Positions 13,653 through 57,297 of a stretch of 64,000 nucleotides of DNA are shown piece after piece. The notes beneath the pieces were generated by a model, which saw nothing but the letters and a program-made list of their open reading frames with translations, did not search any database and was not told where the DNA came from. This DNA is from Nautilus pompilius (Eukaryota > Mollusca > Cephalopoda > Nautilida > Nautilidae), in NCBI GenBank assembly GCA_018389105.1, contig JACATO010001703.1, positions 32,663-96,662 of the forward strand, written 5' to 3'. The translations under genes were made by a program, and so were the position numbers. How positions within the stretch are numbered: the first letter of the stretch is position 1; each line of letters starts with the position of its first letter.

Positions 13653-14639
13653 GGGCTTCTGCACCCTCCCTCAAAAACATCTTTTGTCTAATTGTAAGAT
13701 ATAGAAATCTAAAAACTCAATTTTGCATTCTTCTCGCTGCGAACTGCACGTATGAAAAAGCGCCGGATATTCCCCGGCCAGGTGCGAGGAATATCCGCTA
13801 TAAGTTCAACAGTCAAATGTTAATAAGCCTACCCGATACTGAATCATAATAAATACTAACCCAAAGCCGGCATGTGACAGCCAAACGTTCAGATCTTAAT
13901 ATTTTCGTGATTTGGTACAGGACGTACGTCAGTTCCATAACAACTCACTTTTGATGTGATCTAATTTCAAAATTTTAAGCTTTAGATTTCAAACATTGAA
14001 CTTCGCTGTTAAAACCCTGACTACAGAATGCTCGAAGTTTGACTAGACCGTCAGGCTGACTGCACATCGGGCATGAAATGGTTACAGGCGATATTTTATA
14101 AACATTAATCAATAAAATGTTTTGTTATTGGTTATAAGTAAAAAATCAAAACTCGCTTTTTATTGGTTGTAAAGTTTATAAAATACCTAACACACGTCTT
14201 TGTCTAGGATTGTGGGTTTAAGAGTATTCAAAATGTGTAATGTATACTTTTCGGTTTAATATAATAAAATTAAAATACAAAAATCTTACAGATTCTCTTT
14301 GCTACCGCTTAAAAAAAAAACAAAATATGCATACCTAAACATGAAAGAGCATGGATTTCTACCACACTTCTGCTTACAAATCATCTCTTGAAAATAAATT
14401 CAATAAAAGTTGCAGGATAGATAATAAATGAATTTTTAAAACTTAAATCTAAAATGGATAAAATAAATTTTGAATAAAAATGGTTTGCAAACGATTAAAA
14501 ATTCTTTAATAACAAGAATTAAAACCACAAAATTATATACCTATCTTTATATAATACAGAGGTTATATATACACATAAGAAGTTAATTAAATCGGAAATA
14601 ACATAATATTCATTGAAGTTGTGTTACCTCATTTTGGTG

Positions 14640-15190
14640 ACATGTTTCATCCACTAGGTGATAGAAATATCAACTTTAATAGGAATTTCAGTTTTCATTA
14701 ATCTGGAAACTATTCTGGAGAAACAATCCGTGGGACTTTTTTTTTAGTAGCCTTTTAATAATTTTAAATATTTCATCAATCCAATTTAAGTGCATTTTTA
14801 AAAAAAAATGTTTTAAAACGATACATTAGTACTAAATCTTTAGCTTTAAATAGTTTTTTTTTCTTTTATCATATCTAATTTTGTGTCTACTTAGTTTCCA
14901 TTATTTTTTACACTCGGTTCTTTTGGTGACATGTCGGTAGATCTTTACTTTTTGTTGTTGCGCTCATTCATTGATATATTTAGAATGGTAATCCAGATAT
15001 AATCATTATTTTCTCTAAACTTCTTTAGCGTATTATTTTTAAGGTTTTACCTAATATCTCGACTACAACTGCTTTACCTGCATTATATGTATGATACATT
15101 TCTATTCCTTTTAAAGGTATTTTAAAGTTCTGATAACATGTTCACTTTCCATATCAGTCCGCAGTTTTTATTAAAGATTTTCTAGTTTTA
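14640..15190 (-). pseudogene. Integrase (rve-type) C-terminal half, broken
   Basis: Read on the minus strand, 15,112-15,028 gives MYHTYNAGKAVVVEILGKTL, the pattern around the third catalytic acid of retroviral-type DDE integrases; the Glu in AVVVE sits at that position. Further along, 14,943-14,905 gives TDMSPKEPSVKNN, a conserved post-catalytic segment of Maverick-type integrases, and 14,783-14,753 gives WIDEIFKIIK, as in the C-terminal SH3/chromo-like domain. The three pieces are in the right order and spacing but in different frames with stops between them. The segment with the first two catalytic acids was not found. It would have inserted the element's DNA into the host chromosome; it cannot work now. 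Confidence 0.55.
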
Positions 15191-15452
15191 CTTTTAATGA
15201 AATATTCAAAGTATTTTCAGAAAATACATCTCTTACATTTATTGAAAAAGCTCGCTTATCAACTAAGTCCGCTGACCAGATTATCATCTAGCAGGTTTAT
15301 GTAAATCTCCAGCCAGTACAAGGCAGGTGTCTTCAGCATTTTTTGTGTTTACTTTTTAATTGTACCTGAAACTCTAATTTCCTTGGTGGAACTTCCAAAA
15401 CATATATTACCCTTAATTTTATTTTAAACTAAACGTCTATCAATTTTTTCTC

Positions 15453-15912
15453 TTAAACTAAAATTTTGAGTATTATTATTATCATCATGAATATATCAGT
15501 TTTTTGTCGGCTTCTAATACCAGCAAAACTGCCTACGGAACCACCTTCTTTATAGCTTAAACTATTTGTATAGCACGCACGATCAGCTTTATTTATAGGT
15601 TCTTTACTGTATTTTGGTGAATTATATAGATTTAATCTTGAATCTAATCGCGTTTCCGCACCACAGTAGTTATTATCCCGGTAAATGTTTTTCATCAAGA
15701 TATTTAGCCCTAGGAAATAAAGGAAATTTTCCTAAAGATGATTGTACATCTCCGGAAACAAACTTTAATCCTGAGACAAAAACATGTTTATTTTTCCCAC
15801 AAATGTTACACGCTTCTTTTAACATAAATCGATTATTCTTACTAATAACCTCTTCGTTGTTTGTATTATTTTTACTTTTACATCACAAACAACAATCTTT
15901 AGACTTTTGTTT
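15453..15912 (-). pseudogene. Zinc-ribbon plus phospholipase-A2-like virion protein, broken
   Basis: On the minus strand, two Cys pairs (a CCLxC-type pair at about 15,893-15,873, where a stop has replaced one residue, and CNICG at 15,810-15,796) flank NNEEVISKNNRFMLKEAC, a small zinc-ribbon pattern. It is followed by KYLDEKHLPG and, after a frameshift near 15,680, by NYCGAETRLDSRLNLY and EPINKADRACYTNSLSYKEG. This is the layout of the phospholipase-A2-like domain that some small DNA viruses carry in a capsid protein. The catalytic His-Asp pair expected before SLSY reads Thr-Asn, so the site is destroyed. The same strand and order as the integrase piece suggest one former transcription unit. 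Confidence 0.55.
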
Positions 15913-15929
15913 ATAAGTAAGTCTGAATT

Positions 15930-17190
15930 CAGAATAACAAAAGTATATTTTTCAGCTGATTCTTTTTCTTCAGATCTCACTTTGAGGTGATTAGATGTTT
16001 ATTGTTGATTCCATTGTTGCAACTTGACTAATTTTGTAGATAGTTAAAATTCAAGAGTAGGTTTCTTCTTCTATTCATAAGTTTACAGATGGAAATGAAT
16101 ACAAAAGTTAGTCTGAAACTAAGCAAAGTAAAATTAAATTAAAATTAAATAAACAGTAAGAACTTAAGCGTTTTCGATTTTTTTGTTTAAATGATTAAAT
16201 TTAAAACTTATTGGGAAAATAAGAATAGTAAAGATCATAAGTTTTCATTACTTAGAAATATACGTGGATTGATTATATAAAAAGAGTTGAAACCATGTCT
16301 ACTTAAGAGTATGTTATTCAATCCATGTTTTTTTCAATTATTCTAATGATGTTTTTTTTTAAAAATCTTTACATCAACCTGAATATCAAGCAATAAGAGT
16401 GGGTTTGCTAATAAGCTAAATAAATAACAGATATTAAATATTTTTTTTAATGAAACTGAATTAAAGAGTGAACATTTTGACCCACAAAATATTTGCAAAA
16501 TAATATAAACAAGAAATATATGTAGAATATTTTGACCAAATGATATTTCTAATCCGAAATAAATTAATTCAAAATTTTAAAATTCGCTTATTTTTTTTTA
16601 TGACCATATGTGTGACAAAAATCAAACAGTTTTAGTGATTTTATTATTAGACTATCTACCTTTTAAGTAATAGTTATAAAATTGACACTACTCTTCGTTT
16701 ATTGCAACTTTTATCTAAACAATATTTAAATTTATGTTTCGATTTTAGCATACACAGTTCAGCTATTTACCACAACGATGGTGATGCACAAAATAAACTA
16801 AGTTCAAGTAAAATTATAAACCGAACAAATGTATTTGTCCTGAACTAAAACAAAAACGTCTTATTACAAATCCAGCAAAATTCATCTAAACTAAAAATAT
16901 TTTATTTTACAAAGAATGAAGTAAGCATAATTTGGTGAATAAGAGTCTTGTTTTTACCCTCAGATCAAAATCAGTTAATTGAAAAACTTTGTTTACTTTA
17001 AGCGCCTAAACAAGATACAAATAATAATTTTTTTAATTAGAAAGATGCAAATAGTAATTAATTATTTTAAATAAATTTAATAGATACGCTAATTTAACAT
17101 TATTAATGGTTGAGTAGCTATTTATAAAATAGCAAAAGTGTTGAACAATTGGTAAAATTCAAATATTCCTATAATTTTGTTTATCAAAAA
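15930..17190. other. AT-rich remainder of the element, no product recognised
   Basis: No frame longer than a few dozen codons on either strand, and no motif recognised. It lies between the minus-strand and plus-strand gene remnants, where divergent promoters would be expected in an intact copy. Confidence 0.4.
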
Positions 17191-17199
17191 TGAAAATAT

Positions 17200-17660
17200 T
17201 AGAACAGATTTTTATTCAACATTAAATTTAGATTATACGAAACAATATGAAAATGCTTTGATTAATTTTAAGACGTATTACTCTTTTTCAGATGTTAGTA
17301 AACAAATAATATTTTGAAAATATAGTACCGGTAATGGAATCGTTTGACCAACAATAACTTCAGACAGTTTCATATGAATTTAAAAATTGGCAACGAAATT
17401 CCAACACGTGAAAAATAACAATCATTGATATTTTAAAACTAAGTAATATTACATTACTCTTAAAGCTGATAATGATTTCATTGATATTAATTCTAACTAT
17501 AAGGTTGTTTTACTGTAAAGGATGGTTTAGAAAATCTGTTAAAATTTAACACCAAGACTTTATCATTTGATTACAATTAAAGTGATAATTCAATTAATAT
17601 TTTATCATTTAATTATATTCTTGTAACTTGTGATTTAATTAAAAATAGCATGGGATGTTA
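17200..17660 (+). pseudogene. Conserved virion-type protein remnant next to the capsid gene
   Basis: The plus strand at 17,220-17,300 reads DYTKQYENALINFKTYYSFS, and at 17,560-17,655 SDNSINILSFNYILVTCDLI. I recognise both as patches of an uncharacterised protein family that travels with the capsid-like gene of the same animal elements. Its role (penton, minor capsid or other) is not something I can state. Stops and frameshifts separate the patches. The frame ends where a repeat fragment begins at about 17,670. The assignment is from memory of the pattern and is tentative. Confidence 0.4.
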
Positions 17661-17670
17661 TATATTCCTT

Positions 17671-17752
17671 CTTTATTCTGCCTGTCTCACAAACTGGCTT
17701 CGTTGTAGAAATCAATCTTTCATGATGGCCCTGCTGAGAGAGACTGCAGCTG
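17671..17752. repeat. Dispersed repeat, copy A
   Basis: About 80 bases starting CTTTATTCTGCCTG and ending AGACTGCAGCTG align with 19,204-19,284 (CTTTATTATGCCTG to AGACTGCTCTGA). Shared blocks include TTTATT-TGCCTG, ACAAACT and GTTGTAGA. It is less AT-rich than its surroundings, as expected for an insertion into the viral block. Family unknown; possibly part of a SINE. Confidence 0.6.
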
Positions 17753-18406
17753 TTGTAAGTACTGTAGGAGAGTAAACGTTTCTAATTTAGTATTTACTAA
17801 TTGACATAACCTTTAAACATTTTATCAAATTTTTTGAAGATTTTAAATGGTTAAAAAAACAAAAAATAGGTTGTTTACCAGTTAATAAAAGTTTATTTCA
17901 AACATCTAAATTTTAATTATAGATCAAGATGAAAATGTATAAATTTCCGAAACTAAATTGTTTCACTTAGATTACATTTAAGACAAGTTTAAAATGAATT
18001 TGGATTTGTTTAGATTAAATACTTAAGAAATACTCTAAAAATCACTTGTAACAGAATGTCTGGATATGTTTTTAATAATTCAAAAAGAATATACCCCATT
18101 AGAGATAATTTTGAAAATATTACTAAGGTTTAAAAAGGTTATGTTTCTCACAAAATTAAACTAAAAATAATAAATAATATTTCTAATAATTCTAGCATTA
18201 AAACTTTAGTAATTCGCAAATTAAATTTTCTATTCAAAACATAAATGCACTAACTGCTAGCTCGCGAAACTAAAAAAACTTACAGAAAAGTAAAAAAGAA
18301 ACGTTCAATGCAAATAAACATAGGTAAAGAATTTTAAAAATCAGCTAAAGATATTATAAAATCAACCTTTTAATAATAAATGTTTGTATATTAAGTAGAA
18401 TAAAAA

Positions 18407-18762
18407 TTGACGGCAGTGGATTTAATTATTGATGAAGCTATAAATAAATATGAGTTTTATGAATCTAGAACTGAGATAGATATAAATAATTCTGGTGCAG
18501 AAAATGGTATTACAATTCATATTCAGAGTGCGAATTTATTGCCACATAATGCTGGGATACTGTTTGAAAGAAAACTTTTAAAAGTTTGTAATACAAATTA
18601 TGTCGATAATATAATTATACGGAAAATTCAATTAACAAGTCGTAATCTAGTTAATTGTAAACAATTAGTTCTTCATTGCAATTTTTGCTGCTATGTTTCG
18701 AAACGTTTATTTTTTCCCGTCCTCATGGGTATTTTAATATCTCCTGATGATATTATCACATA
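18407..18762 (+). pseudogene. Major-capsid-like protein, N-terminal part, interrupted
   Basis: An open frame of about 118 codons to the insertion point, starting in effect at LIIDEAINKYEFYESRTEID, followed by NNSGAENGITIHIQSANLLP and LLFERKL-type residues. This is the start of a capsid-type protein family common in hydrozoan, insect and mollusc genomes, which I take to be the double-jelly-roll capsid of a Maverick/adintovirus-like element. The frame remains readable to SPDDIITYFIG and is then invaded by unrelated sequence. The matching C-terminal part resumes about 700 bases later. No ATG starts the open segment, so the true start is lost or further upstream. Confidence 0.55.
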
Positions 18763-18763
18763 C

Positions 18764-18840
18764 TTTATTGGTGGGATTCGAAACAGGAATTGTCTGATTG
18801 TGAATCCGACATTCTGCTGAATGAGCTACCAACAATTATT
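18764..18840 (-). repeat. tRNA-like sequence with A- and B-box motifs
   Basis: The minus strand reads TAGCTCATTCAGCAGA, a relaxed RNA polymerase III A box, and 33 bases later GTTTCGAATCC, a near-consensus B box, followed by CACCA. The stems of a full cloverleaf do not pair well, so a working tRNA is unlikely. It is better read as a retroposed tRNA or a SINE fragment at the left edge of the insertion that breaks the capsid-like gene. Confidence 0.4.
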
Positions 18841-19203
18841 GGTAAAATTGTATCTCTATTTAACCTCACAGATTAGTTTCTCCAAATATTTTATATTTTT
18901 TAGCACGTAGATTGGGTAACTATATAGGATTGAGTTCAAAACTTGACCTGCTAATGGACTGATTGACTAGAACCATGTATGCTACTTCTTTAATCTGTTG
19001 AGCTCCCTAGTGGGGGCTCAATGGCCAGGATCGTTGCTTCTGCTCATTTCAGTGGTTCATCTCTCATTGGACGTGTTCTAAAACCCCTGAGCTCTTTGTC
19101 TTAACCTTTTTTGTTGCTCTCCCGTGTTGTTTTACTCTTACTAACATCGGTCTACATTTTTACCCTTATATGGTCGCCCACAATCGCATATATATACGCA
19201 GTG

Positions 19204-19284
19204 CTTTATTATGCCTGCCTTACAAACTAGATTAGTTGTAGACAGTACATTCGTTACCGTGGTCCTACTGGGAAAGACTGCTCT
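19204..19284. repeat. Dispersed repeat, copy B
   Basis: Second copy of the block seen at 17,671-17,752, in the same orientation, differing by scattered substitutions. It lies inside the insertion that divides the capsid-like gene. Confidence 0.6.
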
Positions 19285-19489
19285 GATATTCATGTACTTT
19301 AAGAAAATAAATGTTTCAAAACGTAGCAATACAAAATGCAATGACGATGCGATGACGAATGTAAGTTTGACAAATAACAGCATATTTCATTTACTTTGTT
19401 AGATTAAAATATATATTTAGATGGCAAAGCAATTGAGGCTATACTTTGTCCGGGTAAAGCAAAAATTATGAAAGAATTGATCTTTTATT

Positions 19490-20100
19490 AAATTCTAGGA
19501 ATTGAACCAATGTTGGTATAAAGACACAAACGAAATGCTTGAAGTTACCAATATAGGATTTAAAGCAAGACATAATAGTATAACAGACAAATCAAATTCT
19601 AGAGACCGATTTAATTTCTCTGTACCAATAACTCACATCTTTGGATTTTGTGAAAACTATAACAGATGGTATATGGAGTAAAGAATTATATTTTTGAGAA
19701 AGCGAAATAATGATTTAATTTTTAGAGGAAACACAGTTGCGGTGGAAAAAATTAGTTTCTTGAAGATAGTGATTTATCTAATGAACAGAAACTGAAATTT
19801 CTTAAGAAACTTTTAAATAAAGTAAACTACAATATTAGTTATGCTAATAGACGATTTGATTGCACTTCTACACATTAATACTAGGTTTTATCGGAGTTTT
19901 ATTATTTCAGCAAGAACAGAAAAGCTTAAAAATATTGGTAGGATTTCGAACTGCTAAAGATAATAGCTAAGGAGCAAATCCTTATATACTTATTAATTTT
20001 TAGTTACCAACGCTCATGTTGTTTTAAATAGCGGTAGATATCTCACCCTTGATCTAAATCTAGATTTTAGAATATTTCATTTAAGCAAATTTTAATCAAT
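19490..20100 (+). pseudogene. Major-capsid-like protein, C-terminal part, broken
   Basis: Plus-strand patches follow in the order expected for the family: CWYKDTNEMLEV, then NIGFKARHNSITDKSNSRDR, FNFSVPITHIFGFCENYN, NNDLIFRGNTVAVEKISFLK, SFIISARTEKLKNI and VTNAHVVLNSGRYLTLDLNL. Stops and frame changes occur between patches (for example after WYME near 19,680). The IFGFC-type block is the most diagnostic. Together with the 18.4-kb segment this is one former gene in plus orientation. It is not expressible as it stands. Confidence 0.6.
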
Positions 20101-20329
20101 TGAGTTACATCTGGTGAATTTTAATTACTTTACGCTCTGTTTTTGTTTAAGTAGAGAATCAAAAGACCAGAAAAGTGGTTTAGCTGATAAGTTGCTTTTA
20201 ATTAAAATTGTCTTGCAAAATCTCAGTGTTTTGTAGTTTTTTTGTCAGACAGAGTTATGAAATGTACAGTCAGATGGTAATAAATTGAATGTTATGTTTT
20301 TTTAAAAAAATATTTATAAACGTTTTGTT

Positions 20330-20720
20330 AAATAAATGGAGCAATAAATTTCTTGTAGGTTTTCTTTAAGTGAACATCAAAAGCAAAAACGGGTAAAAGC
20401 TCTTGGAAAAGTTACTTTACGGTTGAAAAAAGGTCCAATTACACCACCATATTCCTCTTCCTATTACGAGTAGACAAAGAATATTGTAGAGGTTTAATGG
20501 AATTTTTTTTTGAAGATCTACGAAGTGTTGTTCAAGAATAAAACGTTGGTGGATCACTTTGAGCTACTTTCCCATCTCTGTTGAGTATCGGGGAAAGCAA
20601 TTTTATCATTTTTAGATGCAGTAGCTGCAGGTTTTCTTGGAAGACCTACTCGCGCTGATGGACAATAAACTGCGCTAAAGATTTGTACTTTGATCGTAGT
20701 AGTAGCTCACATTTAAAATT
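20330..20720 (+). pseudogene. Short frames downstream of the capsid remnant, unrecognised
   Basis: QKQKRVKALGKVTLRLKKGP (a basic patch, about 20,380-20,440) and ATFPSLLSIGESNFIIF (about 20,565-20,615) remain readable. Small basic core or minor virion proteins are plausible here, but I cannot assign a family. Confidence 0.25.
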
Positions 20721-23700
20721 TTTTTTTAAAAGGGGTTATTCATGTGGCGTAGTTGATATCGCAGTTGAAAATAGAGTGAAAAACAAAAAAATAAAACGCA
20801 TCTGCTAAATGGCACCTGTAAGTATGGAAAGAAAAAATCTAGATGTTTTGGAAACGGGTTAATACTTTGTACCTAATTTGCTATTTTAAAATGCGGTCCA
20901 TAGATCTTTTGATATATATAAACTGTAAGATTTTTGTTTTCTTAGTTTTAATGTGATTTATCTATTTTAATTTTTAAACGCATATCTGCATTCATATATT
21001 AGTTGTTGAGAATTAGTTTATTTTTTCTTTAATATCTATATAATTGTCTTCATGTTGTTTTTCTTTATTTAATTTTTCTTCCCTATTTTTTTTAGATTAA
21101 CTTTTGCTTGATCTTTAATTTCTAAACATTTTAATATTATATTTCTAATCTCCTCAAATTTATCAGTGATTTTATTTCTCCATCTCTTTACTTTTGGATA
21201 TTTTATTTTCATTAAGTTCCTAAAAGCAGCCCATCTAAATCTATTTTTACAAGCATTTTAATTTTTAAATGATAGTTAGAACTAGCAATAAATGCGTTAA
21301 GAAAAGACTTAAGTTTATCATCCTTTCTTCTTTTATTTCTATTGACTTTATGGTAAAATTATCTCTTCTTAAATCTTCCATATGCTTATATATTATTGAT
21401 TTTTTTAAATGCTGTGTAATTTTCGTTTCTTCTTGAGATTTAAATGTTTAACCTAAATAAAACAGTTAAATAGTTTTGATAAAATAATTCATACACCTTT
21501 TAAAGCTTTGTCCATTTATTGACATCAAGTTTTATTCAAAACATTATAATTTAAAAGGAAAGTCTTCTAAAGATCTTTGATATAGAAAAACATGGTAAAA
21601 GATTTTAAATACTTTAAAGAACTTTATGCGAGATACTTTTCTCAATAAACCTAATAAAATAGAATGTTGTTTTAAATTTAGATTCAGTTAAATTCATGGT
21701 TCACACTTTAATTGTTGGTGTAAAGATAATAGAAATATGTATGATTTTGATTTTTGTTGGCGTGCTTCTAATTTTTTAATATAAAGATTTTGATTTAGTT
21801 AGTAGTTTCTTTGATAAAAATATTTTTCATCACATATTCTAAACTAAAAGAAAGTGTTATTTGTGTAATTTATGTCAAACATTTTGGACTAAACACGCTA
21901 AAAATATTTTACAGAATTAAAAGTTGCGAACAAATACAAATTTTAAAGGTTTATTTTAAACTTATTGAATAAATTATTTAAAAGTTATAGGTTAAATTAA
22001 ACTTTTAGATAATATAAATGGTCATAATGTAGATGGAAAATATATTGTTATTCTTTCTAAGTAAATAAATAAATCAAATTTAATTATTTTCGTTAAATGA
22101 TTTAAAATTATGTATAGTAAATAAAAGTGAAAAGGAAAAACAATTAAATTTATTAATTTGTATATTTGGTTTAACATCTTCTATAATAACTGTATTAACA
22201 AACAAATTGAACATACAAAAGAGAAAAATATAAGAATCGTTTAAAATTAAATAAACCTAGTTTAATCTAGATTAAATAATTTAATTTAATGTTATAACTA
22301 AAAAAAAAACAAAAAAATATTTTTAACAAATAATTGAATTTTGTACATAATCACTCAAAGCTGCATTCGAAATCATCGAATTTGCCTGTGTATTCACCAT
22401 AGTTTCTATTCAATTTTAAGTATTAAATGAGTTTAAATAGGTTTTAATTTACTAGTTTAAACGAATCAAAATTTTTTTAAGAAAAAAGAACTGGTTAAAG
22501 TATAATGGCTGGAAATTTGAATTAGATAATCATAGAATTATAGATATTGACCCCGTTAATTTTAATTTTGAGGTTCACATTCATGTAGATAATTAAGTCC
22601 ATCAGATAAATATATTTTGGATAGAATGTGATTTTTGGAAGTAATCCTGTCATTAATTAAAGTAAGTTTTATGCTTTTGACGAAAATAATAATAAAACTT
22701 TAATAATGTAGTTGTATTTCATGTTTTATCACATTCTTTACATTCAACTAATTATAATGGAAATAAATTAATAAATAGAAATGAGACCACAGTAGTTCAT
22801 ACACCAAATAATATAAATGAAAAAATAAAAATAACATTTTCATCGGTAAGAGTTTATGTAAAAACAGACACTTGGATTCAGTTAGAATTTTTGGTATAAA
22901 ATTAAATGTTTTAACGATACAGTAAAAATTAAAGAATAGACATTGTCTTGCACAAAATAGTTATAGGTTTTATGCGTAAGATAAGATAGATTATGATGGA
23001 TTTAAACTGAAAAGAAAACATAATTCTAACTAATGCAAATTTAATCATTAATGCATGAGCGGCTAAAGAATGTTGCTTTAAAAGACTTAGTAAGAAATAT
23101 AAATCTAAACAGTAAAAAATTACAAATTTAATTGCGCCGATATCTGGATCAGACGATGAAAATAAAACTTATAATAATAATAATTTTCTGGATCAATTAA
23201 CGAAACATGCAAGACACTTCAGAATTGATATGAAAAAATGTATTACAGATATTGAATCACCATTAACTCGCAATATAAATCATAATTATTATGCATCCTA
23301 GTACGAGGTTTAAAATTTTAAAGAGTAATACATAGATTTTCTAGAATAGTGGTACTAAATCAATTAAAAATGTGAGTTGGGAAATTTACCAACAGTTACA
23401 GTAGTGTGTGCACATAACTCTGTAGGGCAGGGTAAGTTAAATCATAACCACTGGATAGGTAGAAGCCAAAACGAAACAAATCACATGGGTTATAAACATT
23501 CAAAACTATTGAAAAAGCTCAGAGAAATTAAAAACCACTTAATTCTTTTAATATTAATATATTAAACAAAAATGACGGTTTTAGATTGTTTATATCTGAA
23601 ATCTTTATTTTTTTATTTTTAAGGAACAGAAATTCCCTACTTAAAGTTGTATTATTTTATTTTCTAGTAAAAGTTCTATGCTGTTTAGCAAACATTTTTC

Positions 23701-23880
23701 GAATACTAATAATTACCCCCCACGATGTGCTTCGTGACGTCATTAATTTTGATTATCCTGTAATAAAACTTTTCCTTTGTTAATTCATTTTCTTAAATTT
23801 AATTATAAATCTGGAAAATAATTTCATCAAAGGGTTAGCAATCCGTTTAAGTTTTATTTTCAATGAAAATTCAAACTTTT
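20720..23880. other. AT-rich right part of the element, products not recognised
   Basis: Some stretches remain open longer than expected in such AT-rich DNA: plus strand 22,715-22,900 (Asn-rich, ending TFSSVRVYVKTDTWIQLEFL), 23,145-23,300 (NFLDQLTKHARHFRIDMKKC) and 23,377-23,565 (MGNLPTVTVVCAHNSVGQGK onward). The minus strand near 21,000-21,450 is Lys/Glu-rich. I could not match any to a polymerase, ATPase or protease. Confidence 0.35.
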
Positions 23881-24124: not shown

Positions 24125-24390
24125 CTAGCCCCCTACGCCGCTTATTCTCCCTTCTTCCCGTAACTTTCTTGGAACGTGGCCAATAATTTGGTCATTCCTC
24201 AAAACACATACTGCATATTTGTTGTGAGGATTTTCGGGTTCTCTTCGTGTTTCACCGATGACTGGATTCCAAGAACATTGGTAAATGTGGTGACCGGTAA
24301 CAAAACTATCAAACTGAAATGTTTGGGGCGACGGTCTTGGCATCATGCCATTTTCCGTAATGTTTTTAGAGGAAAAGGTATTTACTTTAC
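24125..24390 (-). pseudogene. HIRAN-like domain fragment
   Basis: The minus-strand frame, ending at the TAG at 24,127-24,125, contains FVTGHHIYQCSWNPVIGE, REPENPHNKYAVCVLRND and QIIGHVPRKL. This pattern (G-H-x-Y, W-x-P-x-x-G-E, P-x-N-x-x-x-x-x-A-V, G-H-V-P) is the HIRAN domain, known from HLTF-type proteins, where it binds DNA 3' ends, and from many stand-alone animal genes of unknown role. The frame is closed upstream by a stop near 24,390 and ends soon after the domain, so it is a fragment or a single exon. It lies wholly inside the inverted-repeat element. Confidence 0.55.
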
Positions 24391-24489
24391 CTTAAAACCG
24401 GGTTGCATGTTTTTGCGATTGTCTATCGAGTGATTGGATAAAGCTTTTTTCCTTCCTTAAATCAATGAATGCTCATTCAATAACCAGAC

Positions 24490-25738: not shown

Positions 25739-25780
25739 AGAGAGAGAGAGAGAGAGAGATGACGTCGATACAGAGAATAC

Positions 25781-25832
<52 letters not shown>

Positions 25833-25876
25833 AGATAGAGAGAGAGAGAGAGAGGAGAGCGAAGAGAGAGAGAGGT
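25739..25876. repeat. (GA)n block with GATGACGTCGATACAGAG unit
   Basis: GA tracts broken by GATGACGTCGATACAGAG at 25,758-25,775, which is the reverse complement of the CTGTA-TGACGTCAT spacer of the CT blocks with one rearranged base. Same repeat family, opposite strand. Confidence 0.85.
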
Positions 25877-33679: not shown

Positions 33680-36600
33680 ATTATTAAACATGCGTGATTT
33701 TTTAAAAAAATGTTGAGGTTTTATGAAGTGCTTAATAAAGATGTGATCGTATTATTCTATCTTATGCAAAACAGTTACTGATATTGGACTAACTCGACAA
33801 TGCATGTACCTAAAAATGTAAATCTCATTTACGGTGCCACGCAACTGCTTATTTCCGCTCGGCTAGTATTTTGGGAGTTAGTTATCTGAAATGTACGAGT
33901 ACACAAGGCGACAGCACACGGCCCCAAACAGAATTATCTCTACTGTTTTAGAGCGTTGTTACGAAGGCCCACGACGGCCTGTGAAGTCATTACTCGAACT
34001 GTTCATCTTTACAGATAATCCACGCATGCTTAAGTTTGAAATCAAGAATAGCCATAAATACTTGCATTATTGTTTTTTTTTTAAGATAATGGTTTATTTT
34101 AAGATTACGTTTTCCATACTCTAACTCATTTCTTTCTTTCTTTTGTAGTAAAGTAAATCTTTCTTTAAAAAAACTTTTTTGTTTTCTTTTTTATAAGGAA
34201 GAAAATAATCGTTTTGCCGATCTGACTTCGGGGGTAAAAAAAAAACAATTTTCAAACATCTTTTCGGTAAAATGGTTTTTAAATGGTATATTTGCAACCG
34301 GTCTTTTAACTTAATTCTTCTCCAAACATGAGACCGATTTGCAACAATGCTTTGATACTGTCTCTGGAGCTCTCCCTCTTTTGTCACCCTTTCGGTAAGG
34401 CGAAGCTGCTAACGACTTTTCTGTGTTGTTACCTTCTTCTTTACGAGGTGTTAAAAAATTTCAAACATGCCCACTGCTTTGATGGCACCTTGAACATATT
34501 TTTCCTGGTAACTTCCAGCTAATGCTTTTGTGTTTCTGCTTCTTTTATAATTTAGTCTTTGATGTAAGATTTCCATCAAAAAACGTTTCATGTAGAGTCG
34601 GTCTTTCTAGCTCACAGGATTCTGTCGGTAACCAGATAGCAGAAAGTTTTCTTTAAAAACCAAAGCTAATTCATTTTTAACGTTTTTTTTTTTTCAGGAG
34701 AGAATGGACTTAGTTTTTACGAAAACAGTCATTCTTGTTAAAATGTACAGATAAGTGAGTCTATAATCGACAGCTGGTGCTTTAACTTTAAGTATATAAC
34801 GTCAAGTATAGCGCCACCTACACGCTTAGTTAGGAATTACTGGTGTACTGGTGATGTAACAGCCTAGTCCCTGTGGTTAGCTTTTCCTTGTTCTTATTCG
34901 TACGCGGTCTCAACAGTGCATCGTATAATTCTCGCGCGGATGTGTGGGTGTGTAAATAAAATCTTACCAGCACACAGATTTAAAAGTCAAGAAAAATATA
35001 AAATTAGCGAGCAAAAAAAACGCTTCTGTATTTTTAATTACACTGGGCGACGACAAAAATAAATTTTCTCTTCTTCTAGAGAAATTGCGACTGTTTCTCA
35101 GTGATTCGGCAGCTGATTCTAAAAGTCAAGTTGAAATTTACTGATCGTCCCTCGTTCTTGACGTACAATAGATTTATTCGAAATATTCTTATATGTCGCA
35201 AAAAAATAACAACGTTTTTTTTTAAGATTTGTGCAGAAACTCTTCTACCTGGAGCTCATGAATTCCACTTCTGCAAATGAGAGCCAAGATCTCCGCGCTG
35301 CAACGATAGAGACAAGTCACGGAACAGATCAATTAGCTCTTCTCGTGCGATCAGATGAGGCAGTTTTTTTGCTGAGCTTCCATAGAAAAAGATATTATCA
35401 GACGAAGAGGACGATGATGATTCATTGTCTCTTTGCAGGATAACTCTTCTGTTTCTCAACTTTCTGGTGGGCATGGCGCTAGAGTCAATGCTTTTGTTAC
35501 AGACGCAATATTTAGATAGTTAATGTATTGTTTGGTTTTTCTAGAGTATCCAGAAACAATTTGTCCAGCTAAACCAGTAGTCAGTCAGATGATCTTCAGG
35601 CTCCCGCCATATCACGGGAACTGCAAACGGCGTACCTGATCCTCTTCTCAATCAGCCGCTGTGTCAAGCCAGATGTACGAACTGTCCAACACACCTGTGG
35701 AACCAAGTGTTTTATCTTGGTCGCCAATTTTACGAACAAAACACAGTGGTAGTAAGTCCCCATTACTTTGTGTGGGACGCCTCGTTTTTGTGGAACTGTA
35801 ATAAATTTTCCACAAAGTAACAGTTGGTAGAAAACTTGACTGTGTGGCGGGTTCGGCTCAGGCCGAAGTGACCGACGAGGGGCGTCTGACTCAGCCCCCC
35901 CCCTTACGTGCTCAAGCGAGGGATGTTCGAGAAAACGGAGCACGCGACTGCTCTGTCGCTGCCGGGCGGATTCAGTGAGCCTGGGGGGGGGGACAAAGCG
36001 AGAATGCTTGGATTATCGTCACAAATGTACGCTTTTCGTCAGGCATGATTCTGTTTTACTAAGTATGGAATCTGATATCACGATTTGCGCATGCGCTAAG
36101 CGGTGCGAATTCTGGGTGTCGGATGCTGAACTTAGAGACGCAGAAAGGCAGCCAGTCCCTCGCCAGTCGTCTCCTTTTCCACCGCTGTGTTCACAACCTT
36201 ATTGTTTTTAGTTCGCCCAGAGCCGTCCTCGATAAACCACCGTGGAATATTGGTGGGGGGCTGTAAAAGATGTGTCGGTCCTTCCGAAAATGCTGCTCAC
36301 GTGAAAACCACTGGAGAACCGACAACAGGGTTGTCAGGAAACTGGATGGCTACGGGCACCACGCCCGTCACCATTGTCAAATATCCGAGGTTATCCGGAG
36401 ACAGACATAATGGAGCTGGTTAATAGTTCCAGTTAGATTTCGCGTCATAAAAGGCAGATCGGTTTAGTGAAAGTCAGGGTTTCTTCTTCGATGCGTTGAC
36501 GATTGAATAAAAGTCTGACAAAACAGCGAAAAGTCTACGACTAAGGAAGCATCCTTGAGGCTGGTGATTCCGGTGGTGGTGGCGGATGTATGGTGACAGT

Positions 36601-56560: not shown

Positions 56561-56588
56561 AAACGTCTTCTACCTTTTGTCCTTTCAG
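55840..56588. repeat. Degenerate TATCTC/CTTCTACCTTTGTC tandem repeat before the acceptor
   Basis: At least ten imperfect copies of a unit of about 50-60 bases reading roughly TTTCAGxTATCTCxxTATCTAAATATCTTCTACCTTTGTxC. Each unit contains a potential acceptor (CTTTCAG or CTTTAG followed by GTATCTC or ATATCTC). The last copy supplies the real acceptor and the first exon bases GTATCTC of the receptor exon. Confidence 0.7.
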
Positions 56589-57297
56589 GTATCTCGCCAT
56601 CTGCTACACGCTGCAGTTCAAGATCACCGGCCAGGTGTCACGTACCATCATCCTTAGCACGTGGGTGTTTGCGCTGCTGATCATGATCCCGTGGGCAGTG
56701 TTCTACCGGCACGTGCCCCATTCCAACCTGTTCATCTGCTACGAGGAGTGGCCCAGCAGCCTGCACCAGACTGCCTTCTTCCTCGGCGCCATTTTTATCT
56801 GCTGCTACACCATCCCGTTGCTGCTCGTCGTGCTCTGCTACACGCTGATCGGGCTGCGCGTGTGGAATCGCGAGGCACCCGGCATCCACGACCAGTCTAA
56901 GGTGATCATGAAGTCTAAGATCAAAGTGATGAAGATGCTGGCCGTAGTCGTGATTCTCTTCGCCTTCTCCTGGCTGCCGCTCTACGCCATCCGCCTTAAG
57001 GCACATTTCAGCCCGATCGAGAGCCGCGTCGTGCACGAGACCATAGTCCCGATCGCGCAGTGGCTCGGCTCGGCCAACAGCGGGGTCAACCCGGTCATCT
57101 ACTGCTTCTTCAGCAAGAAGTTCCAGCGCAGCTTCAAGGCTATGGTCACGTGTCAGCGGAACTCTTTCTCAAACGGAGGCGACAGAAGGCGCTGCATGAC
57201 CACCAAGTACATGACCGTGGAGTACGCCAGTGGTCAGGTTACCCTGTCCTTTCACCGAAAGTCCGCCAACGCTAGAGAGCTCCAAGAATTTGTTTGA
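56589..57297 (+). CDS. Neuropeptide GPCR (SIFamide/NPFF-receptor-like), TM4-TM7 and tail exon
   Basis: The acceptor CCTTTCAG|G restores Arg with the upstream exon; 235 codons follow to a TGA at 57,295. Residues are counted from the DRY Tyr as 1. YLAIC opens loop 2; TM4 is about 19-39; the loop-2 Cys (FICYEEWP) is at 50; TM5 is about 60-92; a Lys-rich third loop (IMKSKIKVMK) is at 106-115; TM6 has FAFSWLPLY at about 125-132 (Trp 128 is the toggle residue); TM7 has SANSGVNPVIY with NPxxY at 167-171; helix 8 is SKKFQRSFK, and a Cys in VTCQRN may be palmitoylated. The WLGSANS-VNPVIYCFFSKKF block points to the SIFamide/NPFF receptor group. It would sit in the plasma membrane of neurons or target cells and couple a peptide to G proteins; ligand and G-protein class are inferred from the family. 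The exon is markedly richer in GC than the adjoining introns. Confidence 0.95.

What the first reader, a model, noticed from the sequence alone, without database searches (positions are those of the whole stretch)
14090..23880. Fossil of a Maverick/adintovirus-like DNA virus in an AT-rich island
One AT-rich block of about 10 kb contains, in plausible genome order, broken pieces of a retroviral-type integrase, a zinc-ribbon/phospholipase-A2 virion protein and capsid-type proteins on diverging strands. The combination of integrase with phospholipase-A2 and a jelly-roll-type capsid is what animal Maverick/adintovirus-like elements carry. The base composition differs sharply from the flanks, as if the invader's own composition survives. 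The lineage to which this copy belongs may be undescribed in the host group.
Basis: partly seen in the sequence, partly recalled or inferred. Interest (0 to 1): 0.75.

Follow-up and report, generated by a model that had tools for sequence, protein, structure and literature searches.

The report
Fossil of a capsid-bearing DNA virus
This AT-rich block is the decayed remains of a virus-like DNA element with a broken shell-protein gene, one of about ninety such remains found in the same animal genome, likely left by one old burst of a Maverick- or adintovirus-type virus; it is a new example of a known kind.

Summary
Partly confirmed. Window 14.0-23.95 kb is AT-rich (GC 0.21-0.32; flanks 0.41). It holds a nearly full-length broken double-jelly-roll capsid gene at 18422-20299 (+) (tblastn E to 3e-20; PF21738 E 4e-6, 26.7 bits, cut-off 27), and a zinc ribbon (PF18930, above cut-off) beside a phospholipase-A2-like piece at 15456-15882 (-). 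The PLA2 call is weak, but the piece recurs in 7 of 24 sister stretches, two keeping the His-Asp pair.

The block is one copy of a dispersed repeat: the capsid gives 104 matches (91 places) in this genome, and 20 of 20 stretches around such places align beyond the capsid. The window copy starts at or before 13.80 kb, lacks about 3.0 kb kept by sisters, and carries insertions. Capsid mismatch is about equal at codon positions 1-3 (27, 28, 26%), as after one burst and neutral decay. Inverted ends show in one sister.

Likely a new member of the Maverick/Polinton-adintovirus kind; formal membership stays open.

The parts
   Evidence: blastn to sister stretches L032 and L025, E 3e-8 to 7e-4; not seen at the stricter setting
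14165..14176 (.). deletion junction: sister L032 holds about 3.0 kb between the two window pieces that meet here
   Evidence: window 14165 matches L032:3960, window 14176 matches L032:961
14176..15450 (.). repeat body without identifiable domain; by position could be the end of a polymerase gene (untested lead)
   Evidence: blastn to sister stretches; no Pfam hit
15456..15731 (-). phospholipase-A2-type piece; the window copy lacks the His-Asp pair that two sisters keep
   Evidence: PF08398 E 0.12; 7 of 24 stretches at E<=1e-3, in L024 only its first part; alignment A4; a phospholipase A2 is the better of two weak PDB hits, E 0.4. Against: no sister piece reached PF08398 at E 0.1
15673..15882 (-). 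zinc-ribbon domain (DUF5679), in another frame, directly before the PLA2-like piece
   Evidence: PF18930 27.7 bits, cut-off 27; 5 of 24 stretches
16100..16645 (.). conserved repeat block; sisters L012, L013, L014 and L020 hold some 600-830 bases where the window has about 75 (16645-16720)
   Evidence: blastn
17156..17314 (+). protein piece shared with sisters; from memory it resembles a minor capsid (penton-like) protein, unproven
   Evidence: tblastn 6 of 24 stretches; no Pfam or database homologue
17644..17795 (.). insertion, a piece of the same short repeat as the insertion in the capsid gene
   Evidence: sister alignments stop at 17643-17646 and resume at 17791-17822, or span it with a gap; 72% identical to 19204-19320
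18422..20299 (+). broken double-jelly-roll major capsid gene, nearly full length, with stops and an insertion
   Evidence: tblastn of 9 homologues; PF21738 E 4e-6, 26.7 bits, cut-off 27; homologue fold
18615..19310 (.). insertion inside the capsid gene with 44-nt inverted arms at 18670-18713 and 19304-19347
   Evidence: 82% complementary arms; 18800-19199 matched by 0 of 20 sister stretches
20374..20905 (+). conserved block after the capsid gene, function unknown
   Evidence: blastn; tblastn 1 of 24 stretches
20905..21550 (.). stretch absent from most sisters, probably a third insertion; holds two small - strand frames
   Evidence: mean depth 1.4 and 0 of 20 in the bins 21000-21399, but L015 matches 20741-21146 in order and L023 20914-21125 out of order; the two frames match 0 of 24 stretches
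21551..23508 (+). right part of the repeat; protein pieces at 22696-22896 and 23116-23298
   Evidence: blastn; 6 and 2 of 24 stretches

Best explanation
The AT-rich block is one decayed copy of a repeated virus-like DNA element with a broken double-jelly-roll major capsid gene, likely a Maverick/adintovirus-type endogenous virus that spread through this animal genome in a single old burst and then decayed without selection. Shown: the capsid pseudogene, the zinc ribbon, the dispersed related copies, the insertions and the deletion, and the even mismatch over codon positions. Inferred: the intact element was about 12.5 kb with terminal inverted repeats; its capsid would have formed an icosahedral shell, the PLA2-type protein would have opened membranes on entry, and a polymerase and integrase, either in the part that this copy lost or supplied in trans, would have copied and inserted it. 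Nothing here suggests a present function.
For: Capsid; fold of homologue P0008. Zinc ribbon and PLA2-like piece. Copies: 104 matches, 97 with stops inside, none complete; 20 of 20 stretches align beyond the capsid, L015 only weakly. Inverted ends in L025, one arm shared by L026. Even decay: 845/3080, 852/3076 and 790/3085 mismatches at codon positions 1-3 over 20 copies. Narrow pairwise spread, p 0.20-0.33, median 0.273 over 185 pairs.
Against: No rve integrase, DNA_pol_B_2 or ATPase by Pfam in the window or in the sister stretches scanned, though the capsid was found there at 5e-12. PF08398 was not reached by any sister piece at E 0.1. Of 11 end regions tested against the L025 arms only L026 rose above shuffles; both window ends did not. 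No 6-bp target duplication seen. The PLA2-like and 17156 pieces found no homologues in the protein database. The structure model is poor (mean pLDDT 56; query TM-scores in the listed rows at most 0.32). L015 taken alone shows a third-position excess (33, 32, 41%).
Confidence: 0.68

Rival explanations
1. A non-autonomous, capsid-carrying element: the family never had its own polymerase or integrase and was copied and inserted by enzymes of full Mavericks in the same genome.
For: No polymerase, integrase or ATPase found in the window or in the sister stretches scanned, while the capsid of a sister is found at E 5e-12.
Against: The left 3-4 kb, mostly absent from the window copy but present in sisters, is large enough for a polymerase and has some short shared frames, more on + than on - (20 against 7 pairs, six or fewer of them from one near-identical pair); frameshifts could hide a gene from profile search.
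Confidence: 0.14
2. Many separate endogenisations of an exogenous virus over time, not one burst inside the genome.
For: Copies are far apart (median p 0.273); L015 alone has a third-position excess.
Against: Over 20 copies mismatch is about equal at the three codon positions, so most divergence arose after the gene died; pairwise distances are narrow.
Confidence: 0.11
3. Fossil of a parvovirus or bidnavirus (a source of PLA2 domains) plus unrelated host repeats.
For: PLA2 domains are best known in parvovirus capsid proteins (recalled; a figure legend in PMC3671162 names the parvovirus PLA2 domain in a comparison with polintons).
Against: The capsid is a double jelly roll, and the PLA2-like piece lies in the same repeat in several copies.
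Confidence: 0.03
4. Chance matches in AT-rich host DNA.
For: AT-rich DNA gives spurious frames; many small frames here mean nothing.
Against: 85.5 bits against 25.8 in shuffles; colinear pieces along almost the whole capsid.
Confidence: 0.01

Closest known systems
Maverick/Polinton elements of animals
   Same: Double-jelly-roll capsid gene, many degraded copies in one genome, inverted ends in one sister copy.
   Different: No polymerase, integrase, protease or ATPase detected; about 12.5 kb inferred; 6-bp target duplication not seen. Features taken from passages of PMC8097293, which also mention marine mollusc elements, and of PMC11071308.
Adintoviruses
   Same: A Drosophila-associated adintovirus capsid is tenth among the viral fold matches of the homologue.
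   Different: Defined by an OTU-bearing PolB and a BLAST-recognisable hexon, with a chromodomain integrase (passages of PMC11071296); none of the enzymes found here.
Adomavirus LO7 and bracovirus R9XLG5 proteins
   Same: First two viral fold matches of the capsid homologue.
   Different: 14-15% identity; different virus types.
PF21738 double-jelly-roll-like proteins P0002-P0010
   Same: 36-44% identical over the capsid piece.
   Different: Frames of 416-435 aa from unnamed public contigs; their neighbours could not be seen.

Membership tests
Maverick/Polinton | double-jelly-roll major capsid protein | tested here: met
[quoted passage not shown]
   no DNA_pol_B_2 by Pfam; the genome search for it did not complete
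Maverick/Polinton | retroviral-type (rve) integrase | tested here: inconclusive
   not listed in any Pfam scan of window or sister stretches; heavy decay
Maverick/Polinton | packaging ATPase and Ulp1-type protease | tested here: inconclusive
   no Pfam hit in the same scans; a piece shared by L012 and L023 looks ATPase-like only from memory
Maverick/Polinton | single-jelly-roll minor capsid | tested here: inconclusive
   shared piece 17156-17314 without homologues
Maverick/Polinton | terminal inverted repeats | tested here: inconclusive
   94-nt arms, 68%, E 3e-7 in sister L025; 1 of 11 other end regions (L026) above shuffles, both window ends not
Maverick/Polinton | 6-bp target-site duplication | tested here: inconclusive
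   ends of L025 read by eye, none seen; exact ends uncertain
Adintovirus | OTU-bearing PolB and BLAST-recognisable adintovirus hexon | tested here: inconclusive
   no PolB found; hexon reference sequences not at hand, only a fold match
Adintovirus | rve integrase with C-terminal chromodomain | tested here: inconclusive
   no rve or chromodomain listed in the Pfam scans

The most novel reading that the evidence does not exclude
A capsid- and phospholipase-bearing satellite of Mavericks: a family of some ninety copies that kept a virus shell but had no polymerase or integrase of its own, and was copied, inserted and perhaps packaged by a helper Maverick, an animal counterpart of virophage-like parasitism.
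Probability: 0.1. Interest if true: 0.65.

Novelty: new member of a known kind. Interest (0 to 1): 0.36.

Why it matters
It adds a family of double-jelly-roll virus fossils whose many dead copies in one genome allow a test of burst against repeated infection: about equal mismatch at all codon positions says the capsid gene was already dead while most of the divergence arose. If the missing enzymes prove truly absent, it would point to satellite-like elements in animals. It also shows that an AT-rich island read by eye can flag a genome-wide virus-derived repeat.

Tried and rejected
Close relatives in viral contigs and genome contigs: none confirmed. PDB sequence search with the capsid profile: none at E up to 1. 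Protein-database searches with the PLA2-like piece and the 17156 piece: no homologues. Penton and ATPase readings were recalled resemblances and could not be confirmed. A polymerase in the left 3-4 kb was considered from size and short shared frames and not confirmed. Inverted repeats at the window copy's ends: none above shuffles; the inverted repeats listed did not pair the two ends convincingly. CpG loss as the cause of AT-richness: only mild (0.82 against 1.01). PHROGs, Rfam and tRNA scans gave nothing useful. The HIRAN-like frame at 24125-24391 is outside the element. No held paper names DUF5679.
Full report
Observation. GC falls to 0.21-0.32 per kb from 14.0 to 24.0 kb, against 0.407 and 0.411 in the left and right flanks. 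Ten frames went to Pfam first: 19499-19681 (+) gave PF21738, double-jelly-roll-like domain (E 1e-4, 21.9 bits, cut-off 27), 15673-15882 (-) gave PF18930 zinc ribbon (27.7 bits, cut-off 27), and 15453-15731 (-) gave PF08398 phospholipase A2 only at E 0.12. With stops read as X, the capsid frame gave PF21738 at E 4e-6 (26.7 bits, just under the cut-off of 27) over profile positions 53-231.

Capsid. A search with the 19499 region found 9 proteins of 416-435 aa among 19 candidates, E 1e-14 to 9e-11, all carrying PF21738. Against the window these 9 give colinear pieces from 18422 to 20299, best E 3e-20; 50 dinucleotide shuffles plus the reversed sequence gave at most 25.8 bits against 85.5. The gene has stops and is split by an insertion of about 0.7 kb. 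The homologue model is poor (mean pLDDT 56), yet 28 of the 30 PDB matches with E up to 0.001 are double-jelly-roll capsids (iridovirus, PR772/PRD1, mavirus, faustovirus, PBCV-1, adenovirus); the other two are chains of a streptococcal surface protein. The first viral matches are adomavirus LO7 and a bracovirus protein; an adintovirus capsid ranks tenth. Query TM-scores are at most 0.32 in the listed rows, so this only agrees with the sequence result.

PLA2 and zinc ribbon. The zinc ribbon matches 5 of 24 sister stretches and the PLA2-like piece 7 of 24 at E up to 1e-3, in L024 only its first part (the 24 stretches lie at 20 places). Of five aligned rows that reach the site, L019 and L020 keep the His-Asp pair; the window, L009 and L013 do not. 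As a profile against PDB sequences the better of two weak matches was a phospholipase A2 aligned on this motif, E 0.4. Against: the protein database gave none, and among 73 sister frames no PF08398 reached E 0.1; one gave PF09056, another phospholipase A2 family, at 0.056, and one gave PF18930 at 0.013. I rate PLA2 as likely.

No integrase. Pfam scans of the six whole frames list no rve, but they also missed the capsid, so they are insensitive. Shorter segments left out 15.5-16.0 kb and the - strand of 18.5-20.2 kb. Sixty frames from five sister stretches and 73 frames from 13 list no rve, polymerase, ATPase or protease. In one search the capsid served as positive control (E 5e-12). Strong decay with frameshifts could hide these genes.

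A repeat family. The host assembly has 727.6 Mb in 2,558 contigs; one capsid protein gives 104 matches (649 candidates, 98 scored), 91 places by my count with the window included and neighbouring rows merged; two places on C2092 have identical figures and may be one duplicated stretch. Of the 104, 97 have stops inside, and the 7 without span at most 120 of 426 residues. Around 20 of these places stretches of 10 kb were fetched. All 20 align to the window beyond the capsid (L015 only weakly), at 58-82% identity per match, over 14095-23508 with gaps; none match 13.0-14.0 or 23.6-25.6 kb at that threshold. Four further stretches show that the family extends left: in a narrower search window 13799-14165 matches the outer left part, and about 3.0 kb present in L032 is missing between window 14165 and 14176. 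L025, a short copy, has 94-nt inverted arms at its edges, 68% identical, E 3e-7; of 11 other end regions tested against these arms only L026 rose above shuffles, and the window's two ends did not. Insertions in the window copy are 17644-17795 and about 18615-19310; about 20905-21550 is probably a third, though L015 matches part of it in order.

Decay. Between the window capsid and 20 copies, in four in-frame segments, mismatch is 27.4, 27.7 and 25.6% at codon positions 1, 2 and 3 (845/3080, 852/3076, 790/3085). A virus diversifying before insertion would show a third-position excess; only L015 stands out that way (33, 32, 41%). Over 185 pairs with at least 1,500 sites p is 0.20-0.33, median 0.273 (the near-identical pair L024/L032 was left out). 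This fits one burst followed by neutral decay, about 0.17 substitutions per site per lineage. With rates of 1-5e-9 per year (recalled) that is roughly 30-170 million years, very rough, and local alignment makes it an underestimate.

What is known. PMC8097293 (abstract and other passages) describes vertebrate Mavericks as mostly degraded elements with two gene modules, inverted repeats and 6-bp duplications, and mentions related elements in marine molluscs. PMC11071296 (passages) defines adintoviruses by PolB and hexon, with an integrase. PMC11071308 (passages) lists integrase, Ulp1-type protease and packaging ATPase for polintons. PMC3671162 (passages) has a figure legend naming the PLA2 domain of parvovirus capsid protein in a comparison that includes insect fragments. 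PMC8502044, the adintovirus paper, was not held. Nine searches listed no paper that I could recognise from title and start of abstract as describing this family; that does not show absence from print.

Verdict. A real, ordinary-in-kind virus fossil: likely Maverick/adintovirus-type, integrase not shown, a new member of a known kind.

Noticed in passing
window 56563-57297 (+): Open frame matching neuropeptide FF, substance P and orexin receptors (best E 2e-25), so the host is an animal.
   Followed up: partly
L026:8789-9823 (+): Open frame of 345 aa without stops that looks like a Tc1/mariner-type transposase (recalled), close to a capsid fossil.
   Followed up: no
L024 and L032 (G000:C1793): Copies of the element lie in opposite orientations here; a 1.06-kb stretch is 97% identical between L032 and L024 in inverted orientation, suggesting a recent inverted duplication.
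   Followed up: no
window 24125-24391 (-): HIRAN-like fragment (PF08797, E 7e-4, below its cut-off) just right of the element.
   Followed up: no
L012:2133-2333 (+) and L023:7336-7503 (-): A piece shared by two copies (42% identical) that from memory looks like a packaging ATPase; the PDB search did not support it.
   Followed up: partly
window 22300-22350 with 34141-34191; window 25743-25875: Short repeats shared with another place in the window and with L009.
   Followed up: no
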